In this document: piece by piece, positions 40,583-45,128 of the stretch
How positions within the stretch are numbered: position 1 is the stretch's first letter
Layout: every line of letters begins with the position of its first letter
Assembly (NCBI RefSeq): GCF_014892575.1
Contig: NZ_JADBGI010000017.1
Span: 1 to 64,000, forward strand
DNA from: Nocardiopsis coralli
GTDB lineage: Bacteria; Actinomycetota; Actinomycetes; Streptosporangiales; Streptosporangiaceae
Length of the DNA stretch: 64,000 nt
Direction of reading: 5' to 3'
Made by a program: the position numbers and the translations under genes
The notes under the pieces: model-generated
Told to the model about the DNA's origin: nothing
Seen by the model: only the letters and a program-made list of their open reading frames with translations
Database searches by the model: none

Positions 40583-40678
40583 TCAGATAGCTCAAGTAGT
40601 TCCGCTTCATTCCGGACCTGGACGGCTCGGCCCTGTATTGCCCACACAGGCCGACCTGTATGAACTTCACGGTCGGCA

Positions 40679-40999
40679 TCATGACAACAGGTAACCGAAC
40701 ACAAACCCGACCCCGCTTGCCACAACGCACAGTACCGACGCCAAGACAAGAAGGGCTTTCGCCCGGCGAACCTCATCCCTGTTCATCGGCCGCAGCTTCC
40801 ATCCTTGCCTTCTGCGCCGACGCAGCAAGTGCACTTCCACGGCCAGCAGGGACAGCACCCCCACAGCAGCGACCGCGGCAGCCCACCACAGTCCGGATGA
40901 AAGGGAGACCAGGGAAGAGATCAGGAGCACCGCTATGAGACCAGCGGAGTACAGCCTCCACGCTCTCGTCTGAGTGGCACCGCCCCCGCGTCCTCGCAT
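40679..40999 (-). CDS. Small membrane protein in RHS cassette region
   Basis: A 106-residue protein with two hydrophobic segments near the N-terminus (SAGLIAVLLISSLVSL, WWAAAVAAVGVLSLLAV), a basic loop (RRRRRQGWK) and a third segment at the end (LLVLASVLCVVASGVGFVFG). ATG 40999 is chosen, with CAGGTG upstream. By position it could be an immunity protein of the RHS locus, but no toxin tip directly precedes it. Family not recognised. Confidence 0.65.
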   Translation of the reverse strand: MRGRGGGATQTRAWRLYSAGLIAVLLISSLVSLSSGLWWAAAVAAVGVLSLLAVEVHLLRRRRRQGWKLRPMNRDEVRRAKALLVLASVLCVVASGVGFVFGYLLS

Positions 41000-41028
41000 G
41001 TGCACCTGCAACGCACCCCCAGCGTCCC

Positions 41029-41211
41029 TCATTCAACGGCGAAGATCAGAGCAGCAGCCAGCGCAACGACGACCAGCGCAACGAGGGACTCAACGTTCTT
41101 CAAGGGACCGCATTTTTTCACCCTGACCACGATGTACACCAGTGCGGCAGAGAGAATCAAAGAGCCCAGAAGCGCGGGCACGAGCCCTCCATCCTCTTGC
41201 GTCGTTGGCAC
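41029..41211 (-). CDS. Small two-TM protein in RHS cassette region
   Basis: A 60-residue protein with two transmembrane segments (LVPALLGSLILSAALVYIVV and LVALVVVALAAALIFAV) separated by a short basic loop (VKKCGPLKN). The start is GTG 41211 with a weak ribosome site. It lies 34 nt after another small membrane gene and 29 nt before the next. Candidate immunity protein or accessory; inferred from context only. Confidence 0.65.
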   Translation of the reverse strand: MPTTQEDGGLVPALLGSLILSAALVYIVVRVKKCGPLKNVESLVALVVVALAAALIFAVE

Positions 41212-41245
41212 ACTCAGCGCATAACCCTCGGCGCACGGGCAACAC

Positions 41246-41413
41246 CTAGACCTCGAACACCAGCGCGAGAAGCGCAGAGACCACGGTCACGGCGTACAGA
41301 AAAGGTTCTGCGACCCTGTGAATCAGGCCTGCACTGTAGCCCTTTATCAGCATCCGCGCCAGCGCAAGAACTGACGCAGAAAACAAGCTCACGCACATGA
41401 CCAGGAAGAACAT
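41246..41413 (-). CDS. Small membrane protein, candidate immunity for the orphan RHS tip
   Basis: A 55-residue protein with two hydrophobic stretches (MFFLVMCVSLFSASVLAL and PFLYAVTVVSALLALVFEV). ATG 41413 is chosen because GAGGTGG lies 6 nt upstream; a longer in-frame reading to 41503 overlaps the orphan tip. It begins 11 nt after the orphan RHS tip ends, exactly where an immunity gene is expected. Confidence 0.68.
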   Translation of the reverse strand: MFFLVMCVSLFSASVLALARMLIKGYSAGLIHRVAEPFLYAVTVVSALLALVFEV

Positions 41414-41423
41414 AGTGACCACC

Positions 41424-41660
41424 TCAAAGCAAACGTTCGTGAGGCACAGCGCAGCGTTGCGCGACAGCCGGTCGAAACGCAGGACAGGCCGAGCAAAGTC
41501 CATAGCTCTGCAGACCTGAGGGGTCCATCTTGTTGATGGGGTCGCATTCGGCGTAGGTGGAGTTGTTCATCTCCTGCCGGGACGGGTCCGCCTGGGTGAA
41601 GTTGAGGGTGAACGTGTCCAGGAACCGGTGGGACAGGTGCACCCTCCCGTCCAGGAACTT
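41424..41660 (-). pseudogene. Orphan RHS core end with alternative C-terminal tip
   Basis: About 140 nt (41520-41660) is nearly identical to 42171-42311 inside the RHS gene and encodes the same core end: FLDGRVHLSHRFLD, TYAECDPINKMDP, SGL. After SGL comes a different 28-residue tip (LCSACPAFRPAVAQ in its centre, four Cys in the first 20). No start codon or secretion signal is present, so it cannot be expressed alone. It is a displaced cassette that could replace the current tip by recombination within the 140-nt identity. Confidence 0.85.
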
Positions 41661-41726
41661 GCCCGGCGGGGCAATGGCTGCCCCACCGGGTGTACTTCTT
41701 CAACTCTCCGAGGGCCGGGAGTACAA

Positions 41727-41891
41727 TCACGAGAAATAGAGAAAGACGCAAACGGCGATCGCCACCCCCGAGATAATCATGACGGCATTTTCGATCCCTC
41801 CACCGCGACGGCCAGTTCCACTCTTATATCCAAGAGAAGCCATGGCCCCAAGGCAGATGATCACTGCGACTGCTGCAACCATCAGAACCAA
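41727..41891 (-). CDS. Small two-TM protein, candidate immunity for the RHS tip
   Basis: A 51-residue (ATG 41882) or 54-residue (TTG 41891) protein in the frame just behind the RHS stop. Two transmembrane segments, VAAVAVIICLGAMASLGY and AVMIISGVAIAVCVFLYF, flank a basic Gly-rich loop (KSGTGRRGGG). AGAAAGAAGA lies 6-8 nt before the TTG and favours that start. It begins 51 nt after the RHS gene. Membrane immunity proteins of this size are the rule for pore-forming peptides, and the RHS tip looks like one. The function is inferred. Confidence 0.6.
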   Translation of the reverse strand: MVLMVAAVAVIICLGAMASLGYKSGTGRRGGGIENAVMIISGVAIAVCVFLYFS

Positions 41892-41942: not shown

Positions 41943-44900
41943 CTATTGGGTCGCCCCATAGGCTCCCCCGGCCATCGTTCCGATCACACCACCGGCGGCA
42001 TAGCCAGCCTTGCAACCGACCCACGCACCTGGAAGGGCGCCGATACCACCGGTCATCAGGCCTCCCGCGAGTGCACCGAAACCTCCCACGAGCACACATC
42101 CGGCCGCAGCTCCAATGATTGCGCCACCTCCGCCATATGCTCCGATCTCCTTGACCGAGACAAGGCCTGTGGGGTCCATCTTGTTGATGGGGTCGCATTC
42201 GGCGTAGGTGGAGTTGTTCATCTCCTGCCGGGACGGGTCCGGCTGGGTGAAGTTCATCGTGAGTGTGTCCAGGAACCGGTGGGACAGGTGCACCGTCCCG
42301 TCCAGGAACTGGTAGGCGCCCGTGTATCCGAACGCGTTCAGCTCCCCGGCCTGGCTGTCTTCGATGGTCTCACTGGTCTGCTCGCCGTAGGGGCTGTAGT
42401 CATAGACCGCGTCCGGGGAATCGGCCTCCGACCCCTCGGCCGTCAGCGCGAGCACGGTGTTCTGACCGTCGATCGTGTAGTGGAACCGCTCGTCCTCGGC
42501 CCAGTCGACCATCGAGATCAACTCACCCTCGGGGTCGCGCACGAAACTCGTCCGGTCGCCCTCAGCAGCGATGTTCGTCACGCCCAGCGCCGTGTTGGAC
42601 AACTGCCGGTCCACACGCTCGTCGCCGTCCACGTCAGTGATCCCGCGCATCTGCGTCTGGTCCGAGGTGTCATAGCTCAGGCTCGTCGACAGATCGCCGT
42701 CACCATCGTCGGAGCGCAGCATCTGGTTGGTCGGGCTGTACTCATAGGAGTCCGAGCCGCGCTCGACCATGTTCCCGGCCTCGTCGTGGGCGACATCCTC
42801 ACCACGGGCCGAGGTGACCTGGTCGGAGTCGTCATAGCTGAAGCTGTCGTCGCCGGCCTCGACCATGTTGCCGGCGTCGTCGTAGACGTAGTCGGTCTCG
42901 CCGTTGCTGGTCAGACGCTGCAACCCGTCGTAGGTGAAGGACTCGGTGTCCCCGTCCACGGTCCGGGCCTGCATCTGGTCGCTGTCGGCGCCGTCGTTGT
43001 CGTAGGAGTACGACGCGGACAGCAACTCCTGGTCCTCGGCCCCGGTCGTGGTGATGCCGGTCAGCCGCGCGGAGTCGTCGTAGGTCCGGGACTCCTCGGC
43101 CCCATCCGGGTGGGTGATCAGCGTGCGCTGGTTGTTGGCGTCCGACTCGAACGTGGTCTCCGCCCCGGTGTGGTCGGTCAGCGAGGTGAGACGGAACGCC
43201 GCGTCATAGGCGTACTCGGTGGTCTGGCCGTGCTCGGTCAGCTCGGTCAGGTTGCCGGCCGCGTCGTAGGAGTACTCGGTGGTCTCGGTGCCGCCCGAGT
43301 CCGAACGCTCGGACTCGAGCAGGTCACCGCGCCCGTTGTAGTCGAACTCCGTCGTGGCCTGGTCGGTGTGGGTCTCCACCTGGCGGCCGTTGCCGTCATA
43401 GGTGATGGACTCCACGACGTCGCCGTCGTGGGAGACCGAGACGATGCGGTCGAGCCGGTCGTAGCCGTACTCGATCGTGGTGCCGTTGCCGTCGGTCACC
43501 TCGGTGACCCGCGAGAGCGAGTCGTAGCCGAACTCCATGTCACCGGCGGGCCCGGGCTCGGTCATCGAGACCAGGTTGCCGACATCGTCGTAGGAGAACG
43601 TGGTCTCGTTGCCGTTGGCGTCGGTGGAGGAGGACACCAACCCCTGACCGGTGTAGTCCATGTCGGCCACGGTGATGTCCATGTCGTCCTGGCTCGCGGA
43701 GACCATGTTCCCCGAGTCGTCGTAGGACATCGACAGCTCGTCACCGTCGGGCGTGGTCACGCTGGTCGGCTTGGCAGGGTTCGCACCGTCGGTGAACCCG
43801 ACCGCGGTCTCCGCCCCGGTCGGCAGCTCCGTGCCGATGAGGTTGTTGAACTCGTCGTGCTCGTAGGTCACCGAGGCCTCGAGCGCGTCGGTGGTGGTGG
43901 CGATGTCGGAGTTGGCGGTCCAGGTCTGCGAACGGGTGTTGTCGACCTGGTCGGTGGCCTCGGTCTGGCGGCCCTGGTCGTCGAAGACGAAGCCGGACTC
44001 ACCGCCGTTCGGGTCCTCGACGGTGGTCTCGCTGCCCTCTTCGGGGCTGTCGTCGTAGGAGTAGGACGTGGTCGCCCCGTCGTCCGAACCGTTCGGCACG
44101 CTCAGGGACGCGACCTGGTCGTCGTCGTTGTAGCTCACGCTCCAGGTGGCACCGGTGGGGTCGGTGACCGAGGACAGGAGCCCGCCGTCGGTGTAGGAGA
44201 ACTCGATGTCCTGCCCGGCGCGGTCGGTGAGCTCGGTCAGGTTGCCGTCACCGTCGTAGGAGAAGGCCGAGGCGGTCTCGTCGACGGGGTCGGTGATCTC
44301 GGTGACCTGGTCGGTGGCGTCCTCGTCCCAGTCGAAGGTGGTGACGCGGTCCTGGGTGTCCACGACCGAGGCGAGGTGCCCGTCGGGGTCGTAGCGCATC
44401 CGGTGGGTGTTGCCGTTGCGGTCGGCCTGGGAGTACAGCCACCCCTGGGCGTCGAAGGTCCAGACCTGGTCCTCGTACTCACCCCGGTGGAAGGTGAGCG
44501 CGTAGTGGCCGTTGTCGAGCTCTGCCAGGTCGCCGTTGATGCCGGACGGGGTGTCGTAACCGCCGTCGTCGTTCTCGGTGAAGCTCTCGCAGAACCCGGA
44601 GGGCCCCTGCAGCACGACGGTTCCGTCGAAGATCTGGAGCCCGACCTCCTGGCCGTGGGACAGGGTCCAGCCGTCCTGGCCGTCGGTGGAGTTGTAGAAG
44701 CTGGAGACCGACAGGTCCATCCCGGTGCCGACCATGGTCAGGTCGCGGTGCTGGACGACGAGGTTGCCGGTGGCGGTGTTGACCGCGAGCTCGAGGCGGT
44801 CGCTGACCTGGTGGCGTTCGAGCGGGTACCACTCCTGGATCCCGCCGTTGCCGTGGTTGCCGCAGTGGTCGGCCAAGGCGTCGTCGTCCTGGGCCTCCTC

Positions 44901-45128
44901 GGAACCGGGTTCGATGCCGGGCGGGGTCCAGGCCTCCTCGGGCGGGTCACCGCCGGCGGGTTCGGTGTTGGCCTCGCCCGGTTCCCAGGTCTCGGGGACC
45001 GGAACGGTGCGGTCGGCCGGTGAGTGGGGGTCGTCGTCGGCCCAGGCGGGCGGCGCGTGCAGCAGACCGGTGACGAGTGTGGCCGCGGCGACCGAGGCCA
45101 CAGCGACGCGGGGGGATCGGCGTCTCAA
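41943..45128 (-). CDS. Secreted RHS/YD-repeat protein with glycine-zipper C-terminal tip
   Basis: A polymorphic-toxin-like protein of 1061 residues. A signal peptide (ends near PPAWA, about 30) is followed by an acidic Pro-rich segment. Then come over 30 YD repeats (for example YDGDGNLTELTDRAG, YDDVGNLVSMTEPG) forming the RHS shell. The core terminates with HLSHRFLD...DPINKMDPTGL at about 989. The last 72 residues are a distinct tip with alternating Gly and hydrophobic residues (GAIIGAAAGCVLVGGFGALA, then AGYAAGGVIGTMAGGAYG), like class IIb pore-forming bacteriocins. The start is TTG 45128, with GGAGCG 8 nt upstream. Candidate immunity gene lies directly downstream. Confidence 0.9.
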   Translation of the reverse strand: MRRRSPRVAVASVAAATLVTGLLHAPPAWADDDPHSPADRTVPVPETWEPGEANTEPAGGDPPEEAWTPPGIEPGSEEAQDDDALADHCGNHGNGGIQEWYPLERHQVSDRLELAVNTATGNLVVQHRDLTMVGTGMDLSVSSFYNSTDGQDGWTLSHGQEVGLQIFDGTVVLQGPSGFCESFTENDDGGYDTPSGINGDLAELDNGHYALTFHRGEYEDQVWTFDAQGWLYSQADRNGNTHRMRYDPDGHLASVVDTQDRVTTFDWDEDATDQVTEITDPVDETASAFSYDGDGNLTELTDRAGQDIEFSYTDGGLLSSVTDPTGATWSVSYNDDDQVASLSVPNGSDDGATTSYSYDDSPEEGSETTVEDPNGGESGFVFDDQGRQTEATDQVDNTRSQTWTANSDIATTTDALEASVTYEHDEFNNLIGTELPTGAETAVGFTDGANPAKPTSVTTPDGDELSMSYDDSGNMVSASQDDMDITVADMDYTGQGLVSSSTDANGNETTFSYDDVGNLVSMTEPGPAGDMEFGYDSLSRVTEVTDGNGTTIEYGYDRLDRIVSVSHDGDVVESITYDGNGRQVETHTDQATTEFDYNGRGDLLESERSDSGGTETTEYSYDAAGNLTELTEHGQTTEYAYDAAFRLTSLTDHTGAETTFESDANNQRTLITHPDGAEESRTYDDSARLTGITTTGAEDQELLSASYSYDNDGADSDQMQARTVDGDTESFTYDGLQRLTSNGETDYVYDDAGNMVEAGDDSFSYDDSDQVTSARGEDVAHDEAGNMVERGSDSYEYSPTNQMLRSDDGDGDLSTSLSYDTSDQTQMRGITDVDGDERVDRQLSNTALGVTNIAAEGDRTSFVRDPEGELISMVDWAEDERFHYTIDGQNTVLALTAEGSEADSPDAVYDYSPYGEQTSETIEDSQAGELNAFGYTGAYQFLDGTVHLSHRFLDTLTMNFTQPDPSRQEMNNSTYAECDPINKMDPTGLVSVKEIGAYGGGGAIIGAAAGCVLVGGFGALAGGLMTGGIGALPGAWVGCKAGYAAGGVIGTMAGGAYGATQ

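What the first reader, a model, noticed from the sequence alone, without database searches (positions are those of the whole stretch)
41943..42160. RHS protein tipped with a bacteriocin-like glycine zipper
RHS tips are mostly nucleases or other enzymes. Here the 72 residues after MDPTGL alternate Gly/Ala and hydrophobic residues with two Cys, as in class IIb pore-forming bacteriocins. This would be an RHS protein that delivers a membrane-active peptide, cleaved at the DP-x-G-L site.
Basis: partly seen in the sequence, partly recalled or inferred. Interest (0 to 1): 0.78.

Follow-up and report, generated by a model that had tools for sequence, protein, structure and literature searches.

The report
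RHS proteins tipped with membrane peptides
A soil-type actinobacterium carries a large secreted 'cage' protein ending in a short, greasy, glycine-zipper peptide next to a tiny membrane protein that probably protects the maker, and it is one of dozens of interchangeable peptide-plus-protector pairs found on the same cage across related bacteria, so it is most likely one of a whole arsenal of caged membrane-attacking toxins.

Summary
On the minus strand (45128..41943) a 1061-aa, signal-peptide-bearing RHS/YD-repeat protein ends in 72 Gly/Ala-rich hydrophobic residues with two Cys after MDPTGL. Its only close relative (86-87% identical) shows strong purifying selection. It is not a one-off. About 40 RHS proteins or orphan cassettes with the same core, in three related genera, carry short (44-102 aa), mutually divergent tips; 36 of 40 have exactly two Cys. 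32 of 42 are followed within 125 nt by a small ORF with two predicted membrane segments (1.2% at random positions; 0 of 74 after other long ORFs). Near-identical cores carry unrelated tips, tip and downstream ORF co-vary, and tandem orphan cassettes exist. That is the anatomy of polymorphic toxin-immunity cassettes, here with a repertoire of membrane-type tips. But the class IIb bacteriocin link is analogy, not homology, and membrane-active RHS tips have a precedent (Tse5/Tsi5). New is the Sec-exported, two-Cys, small-peptide version and its scale in actinobacteria. Toxicity, pore formation, cleavage and disulfide are inferred, not shown.

The parts
41943..45128 (-). RHS/YD-repeat protein, 1061 aa: signal peptide, RHS shell, core, tip (TTG start; stop-to-stop frame 1095 aa)
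   Evidence: ORF; Pfam RHS_repeat 6.4e-58 (15 stretches), DUF6531 plug 1.7e-6; TIGR03696 Rhs_assc_core 1.6e-11 at 911-989; best solved relative 7q97 Rhs 1.6e-34, also Tse5 8cp6 1.5e-25
45039..45128 (-). Sec-type signal peptide, residues 1-30 (...LVTGLLHAPPAWA|DDD)
   Evidence: read from the sequence; same layout in homologues, e.g. LVLGLLSAPPALAD; not tested with a signal-peptide predictor
42162..42554 (-). C-terminal RHS core, 131 aa, with putative aspartyl dyad D964 (42239..42237) and D985 (42176..42174) and cut after L989 (42164..42162)
   Evidence: D964, D985, P986, G988, L989 invariant in 12 homologues; same logic as Tse5 D1141/D1164/L1168 (PMC10684867)
41946..42161 (-). 72-aa glycine-zipper tip with C22 and C50 (proposed membrane-active toxin)
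   Evidence: AF2 gives two helices 3-37 and 42-71 but at low confidence (pLDDT 56)
41727..41891 (-). 54-aa small membrane protein, two predicted TM segments (TTG 41891 or ATG 41882 start), proposed cognate immunity protein
   Evidence: conserved beside the same tip in L004 (63% over 49 aa), codon-position pattern of differences 26/14/69%
41424..41663 (-). orphan cassette remnant: core fragment (HLSHRFLDTFTLNFTQADPSRQE...DPSGL) followed by a degenerate 28-aa tip
   Evidence: match to the core, 86% over 51 aa, 1.0e-25; tip QSYGLCSACPAF...
41246..41422 (-). 58-aa ORF with two predicted TM segments, probable orphan immunity gene of the decayed cassette
   Evidence: ORF, hydropathy; no relative found among fetched loci
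41029..41211 (-). 60-aa ORF with two predicted TM segments, possible orphan immunity gene
   Evidence: ORF, hydropathy; no relative found among fetched loci
40679..41032 (-). 117-aa membrane protein, probable orphan immunity gene
   Evidence: related to the ORF behind a glycine-zipper tip in L046 (13466-13753, 2.6e-9) and to one in L048 (1.4e-9)

Best explanation
This is a toxin-immunity cassette of an RHS polymorphic toxin. The carrier is exported by Sec (signal peptide seen in sequence; export inferred) and folds outside the cell into a closed RHS shell (inferred from family membership) that holds the very hydrophobic 72-aa tip. The RHS core cuts after DPTGL with the D964/D985 pair (residues conserved; cutting inferred). 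On contact with a related competitor the freed peptide enters its cytoplasmic membrane as a glycine-zipper helical hairpin, probably stabilised by a C22-C50 disulfide, self-associates and depolarises the cell (inferred). The 54-aa membrane protein encoded just downstream binds or blocks the peptide in the producer's own membrane (inferred). The tip and immunity genes move as one cassette between RHS carriers (shown by sequence comparison), and cells keep orphan cassettes and orphan immunity genes as a repertoire (shown as anatomy, use inferred).
For: Shown: ~40 tips behind one core class, 44-102 aa and hydrophobic; exactly two Cys in 36/40, and 35/39 against a pooled-shuffle mean of 10.5 and maximum of 20; a 45-130 aa ORF with >=2 predicted TM segments starting within 125 nt downstream in 32/42, versus 82/7109 random positions and 0/74 after other long ORFs. 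Cassette logic: core versus tip similarity r=0.01 (P=0.40), tip versus partner r=0.54 (P<0.0005); the window core is closest to that of L058/G039 (91% identical), whose tip is unrelated, while its tip and partner match those of L004; synonymous divergence differs between tip (dS 2.3) and core (dS 0.49) of the same gene pair. Tandem orphan arrays in G057 and orphan remnants in the window. Both tip and partner are conserved as proteins. Enzymes are detectable where they occur: RHS proteins of the same genus with another core end in a nuclease (Endonuclea_NS_2, 3e-16) or a papain-fold deamidase (Gln_amidase, 4.7e-12), while the tips here hit no enzyme family convincingly. Precedents: Tse5 forms pores and its immunity protein Tsi5 has two predicted TM regions (PMC9637101); CDI ionophores (PMC11630599); an isolated glycine-zipper region of Tde1 permeabilises membranes (PMC10240207).
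Against: No experiment. AF2 models of the tip are of low confidence (pLDDT 56 alone; about 25 within the full protein), so the hairpin and the disulfide geometry are unproven. The tip has little net charge (+1), unlike many membrane-killing peptides. 10 of 42 tips lack a clear two-TM ORF (some are truncated remnants). TM segments are from a simple hydropathy window, not a trained predictor. Most tips are too divergent to prove common descent. In L021 a glycine-rich stretch sits in front of an enzyme, so such stretches can also serve as translocation segments. The tip-partner correlation leans on two close pairs.
Confidence: 0.74

Rival explanations
1. The tip is a toxin but does not make pores: it inserts into the membrane to jam one membrane protein or a cell-wall lipid carrier, and the small membrane protein shields that target.
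For: Class IIb bacteriocins and CDI ionophores use membrane receptors (PMC8538875; PMC11630599); the tips are very diverse, as if aimed at different partners.
Against: Parallel divergence of tip and partner suggests direct contact between the two; conserved GxxxG spacing suggests helix packing and self-assembly.
Confidence: 0.14
2. The glycine-zipper stretch is a pre-toxin or translocation segment whose enzymatic cargo was lost, so the protein is a decayed or inactive toxin.
For: L021, an RHS protein in the same genus, has a glycine-rich hydrophobic stretch before a Gln_amidase toxin; Tde1 uses a glycine zipper for entry (PMC10240207).
Against: Dozens of tips end at similar length, each usually with a membrane partner; purifying selection on the tip and conservation of the partner; intact frames up to the stop in two species.
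Confidence: 0.06
3. The tip is a membrane anchor that holds the RHS protein on its own cell, and the small membrane protein is an assembly factor; no toxicity.
For: A C-terminal hydrophobic hairpin could anchor a secreted protein; no cell-wall anchor domain was found in P0002.
Against: An anchor needs no such diversity on near-identical carriers, no orphan cassette arrays and no self-cleaving core just before it.
Confidence: 0.05

Closest known systems
Tse5/Tsi5 (Pseudomonas aeruginosa T6SS RHS effector; PMC9637101, PMC10684867)
   Same: RHS shell with DUF6531 plug, aspartyl self-cleavage after DPxGL, membrane-active tip, small immunity protein with two predicted TM regions
   Different: Delivered by a type VI machine with an N-terminal PAAR-like part; tip about 149 aa; one effector described. 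Here a Sec signal peptide, a 72-aa two-Cys tip, and a large interchangeable repertoire
CDI ionophore toxins CdiA-CT/CdiI (PMC11630599)
   Same: Polymorphic membrane-depolarising tips with highly divergent cognate immunity proteins; a putative glycine zipper
   Different: CdiA carrier, two-domain tips with a receptor-binding entry domain and a five-helix ionophore domain; Gram-negative targets
WapA-type Sec-exported YD-repeat toxins of Gram-positives (e.g. Streptococcus suis WapA, PMC12704120; Bacillus WapA)
   Same: Sec signal peptide, RHS shell, variable C-terminal toxin and downstream immunity gene
   Different: Characterised Bacillus tips are tRNases; S. suis WapA is about 350 kDa with a wall-binding region and sortase/SecF-like partners, none of which was seen here
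Class II microcins (e.g. microcin V) and class IIb two-peptide bacteriocins
   Same: Small hydrophobic peptide, GxxxG motifs (class IIb, PMC8538875), disulfides (class IIa microcins) and membrane immunity proteins (PMC9746304)
   Different: Microcins are free peptides with a double-glycine leader exported by a C39 ABC transporter; class IIb act in pairs; no sequence-family match here
Tox-WTIP (Zhang et al. 2012, PMC3482391), the one pore-forming polymorphic-toxin domain of that survey
   Same: Small domain with two predicted membrane helices, found on RHS carriers
   Different: Proteobacterial; carries RxxR and Wx[ST]IP motifs, absent here

Membership tests
RHS polymorphic toxin | RHS/YD repeats and RHS-associated core | tested here: met
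   PF05593 6.4e-58, TIGR03696 1.6e-11; Rhs structures 1.6e-34
RHS polymorphic toxin | Conserved core followed by variable, exchangeable tips | tested here: met
   Core versus tip similarity uncorrelated (r=0.01), near-identical cores with unrelated tips
RHS polymorphic toxin | Candidate immunity gene directly downstream, orphan cassettes | tested here: met
   Small two-TM ORF in 32/42 versus 1.2% expected; orphan arrays. Protection itself not tested
RHS polymorphic toxin | Self-cleavage after DPxGL by an Asp pair | tested here: inconclusive
   D964, D985, L989 invariant; activity not testable here
Pore-forming RHS tip (Tse5-like) | Tip inserts in membranes and conducts ions | not testable with these tools
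   Only hydrophobicity, glycine spacing and a low-confidence helical model
Class IIb two-peptide bacteriocin | Two complementary peptides from adjacent genes | tested here: not met
   One tip, followed by a two-TM ORF and then decayed or orphan immunity-like genes
Class IIb two-peptide bacteriocin | Match to a bacteriocin family model | tested here: not met
   No bacteriocin family for any of 36 tips in Pfam or NCBIfam at E<=0.5
Class IIb two-peptide bacteriocin | Free peptide gene with its own leader | tested here: not met
   The peptide is the C-terminus of a 1061-aa protein with a signal peptide; a dedicated ABC transporter was not searched for in the genome
Class IIb two-peptide bacteriocin | GxxxG motif in helices | tested here: met
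   12 GxxxG; conserved spacing of 4
Tox-WTIP | RxxR and Wx[ST]IP motifs | tested here: not met
   Absent from the tip sequence; motif definition from PMC3482391
CDI ionophore | Five-helix ionophore domain plus entry domain on CdiA | tested here: not met
   RHS carrier and only 72 aa

The most novel reading that the evidence does not exclude
Actinobacteria run a large, unnamed arsenal of Sec-exported RHS cages specialised in one kind of payload: disulfide-stapled, microcin-like membrane peptides of 44-102 aa, each with a private two-TM immunity protein, swapped as cassettes and stored in tandem arrays. They are in effect protein-caged bacteriocins, with the cage solving the problem of exporting and delivering an insoluble peptide.
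Probability: 0.55. Interest if true: 0.76.

Novelty: new variant of a known kind. Interest (0 to 1): 0.62.

Why it matters
If true, it extends RHS weaponry from mostly enzymatic payloads to a broad class of small membrane peptides in Gram-positive soil bacteria, links two fields usually kept apart (polymorphic toxins and bacteriocins), and offers dozens of ready, cognate toxin-immunity pairs of 50-100 residues for studying how a membrane immunity protein recognises its peptide. It also explains a set of tips that current family libraries leave unnamed.

Tried and rejected
Plus-strand reading of the coordinates: unrelated. Pfam, NCBIfam, PHROGs on tip and partner and PADLOC on carrier and partner: nothing significant for tip or partner; across 36 tips only isolated weak hits (DUF6861 3.4e-4, Gly-zipper_YMGG 4.6e-4, TagQ 1.7e-3). 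Solved structures for the tip: best E 0.14, chance level. AF2 of the tip and of the full protein: low confidence, so no fold search was run. Tip in 201 genomes of the family sample: no match beyond the window's own genome; other tip families searched as profiles gave only RHS tips already seen and a few other hits not followed up. Considered and set aside: anchor, inert linker and lost-cargo readings (see rivals). Literature: no paper found that joins Nocardiopsis (my guess at the genus) with RHS toxins and immunity, and none of the hits for RHS, Streptomyces and polymorphic toxin was recognisably about such tips (titles and abstracts only).

Full report
What is there. The finding lies on the minus strand. 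ORF 45128..41943 encodes a 1061-aa protein with an evident Sec-type signal peptide (...GLLHAPPAWA|DDD), 15 RHS-repeat stretches, a DUF6531 plug and an RHS-associated core ending in CDPINKMDPTGL. After it come 72 residues rich in Gly (24) and Ala (15), with Cys at 22 and 50, and a stop. The two Cys are mirror-symmetric about the middle of the tip, as expected for a hairpin stapled across, but AF2 gives two long helices only at low confidence (pLDDT 56), so this stays a suggestion.

It is a real, selected protein. The one close relative found (L004, NYMS01000038.1, identical in place to G011:C32) has the same tip at 86-87% protein identity. DNA identity is only 74%, with 61% of third positions changed against 6-11% of the first two. 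Six more or less related tips keep glycines at steps of four or eight. The tip matches no enzyme, linker or bacteriocin family.

It is one of a set. Searching 40 genomes of the genus, 343 of the family and 395 of the class with the 131-aa core gave about 40 places where the same core class is followed by a short tip. Tips are 44-102 aa, hydrophobic and mostly unlike each other. 36 of 40 have exactly two Cys, and a pooled shuffle of the tip residues never came near this (mean 10.5, maximum 20, against 35 of 39). Two exceptions look like frame-shifted remnants. A small ORF with two predicted membrane segments starts within 125 nt in 32 of 42 cases, against 1.2% at random positions of the window and none after 74 other long ORFs. 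In the window it is 41891..41727 (54 aa), conserved beside the same tip in L004.

Cassettes are exchanged. Across 33 pairs, tip similarity follows partner similarity (r=0.54, P<0.0005; this leans on two close pairs) but not core similarity (r=0.01). The window core is nearest to that of L058, whose tip is unrelated, while the tip and partner match L004. Between window and L004 the synonymous divergence of the tip (2.3) is far above that of the core (0.49). G057 holds tandem arrays of core-fragment plus tip plus small membrane ORF. The window holds a decayed cassette (41663..41424) and three further small membrane genes, one of them related to an ORF behind a glycine-zipper tip in L046 and to one in L048.

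Controls. RHS proteins of the same genus with a different core end in recognisable enzymes: L020 a DNA/RNA non-specific endonuclease, L021 a glutamine-deamidase toxin behind a glycine-rich stretch. So the libraries do detect enzymes, and membrane-type tips go with this core class. More distant cores in other families of the class (L066, L068, L069, L070, L073, L074, L076) and on Streptomyces plasmids (L085, L088) show a similar two-Cys tip, mostly with a hydrophobic ORF behind it. L071 (four Cys, soluble) and L087 (not hydrophobic) are exceptions.

Mechanism. Best reading: export by Sec, enclosure in the RHS shell, cut after DPTGL by D964/D985 (invariant in 12 homologues; equivalent to Tse5 D1141/D1164 and the L1168|I1169 cut, PMC10684867), insertion of the freed peptide into a competitor's membrane, depolarisation; the 54-aa protein protects the producer. 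Shown here: anatomy, conservation, association, exchange. Inferred: export, enclosure, cutting, disulfide, insertion, killing, protection. The full-length AF2 model is a beta-rich repeat protein of moderate to low confidence (mean pLDDT 58) and places the tip at no confidence, so enclosure rests on the family, not on this model.

Known or new. RHS delivery of a pore former with a two-TM immunity protein is known (Tse5/Tsi5, PMC9637101), polymorphic ionophores are known in CDI (PMC11630599), and a glycine zipper alone can permeabilise membranes (Tde1, PMC10240207). The 2012 survey of polymorphic toxins lists one pore-forming domain, Tox-WTIP, whose motifs are absent here (PMC3482391). Class IIb bacteriocins fit only by analogy. 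I found no description of this actinobacterial two-Cys tip set in the library searched, which does not hold most subscription journals. Verdict: new variant of a known kind.

Noticed in passing
G000:C45:58165-61308 (L002): The same genome has a second RHS protein of this core class with a different 97-aa two-Cys tip (MSAVDHGDMASG...) and a 105-aa two-TM ORF behind it.
   Followed up: partly
L046 (G057:C3:238500-256500) and L047 (G057:C1:3580000-3592500): Tandem arrays of orphan core-fragment + tip + small membrane ORF cassettes, a dozen core matches in one genome; a repertoire ready for recombination.
   Followed up: partly
L021 (G015:C34): RHS protein with a glycine-rich hydrophobic stretch followed by a Gln_amidase toxin domain; hints that glycine-zipper stretches also serve as entry segments.
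   Followed up: partly
L002, L046 5097-5360, L050, L051, L054: A tip subfamily with two closely spaced Cys (6-8 residues apart) and a conserved GGS motif followed by a more polar tail; its partner ORFs are weakly related to each other.
   Followed up: partly
L085, L088 (Streptomyces plasmids NZ_CP070243.1, NZ_CP108552.1): Plasmid-borne RHS proteins with two-Cys hydrophobic tips; annotated only as RHS repeat-associated core proteins, partner hypothetical or unannotated.
   Followed up: partly
L087 (NZ_CP139046.1): A tip with exactly two Cys that is not hydrophobic, with a hydrophobic ORF just behind it; the two-Cys rule may be wider than the membrane-peptide rule.
   Followed up: no
L004 = NYMS01000038.1: Record named Glycomyces fuscus (NCBI: Glycomycetales), yet the same contig (G011:C32) is placed in the window's own genus by the genome collection; the label looks doubtful.
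   Followed up: no
window 41891..41727 and 41500..40670: The immunity-like gene has 53% G+C and the orphan stretch 61%, against 69% for the window: a foreign-looking stretch.
   Followed up: no
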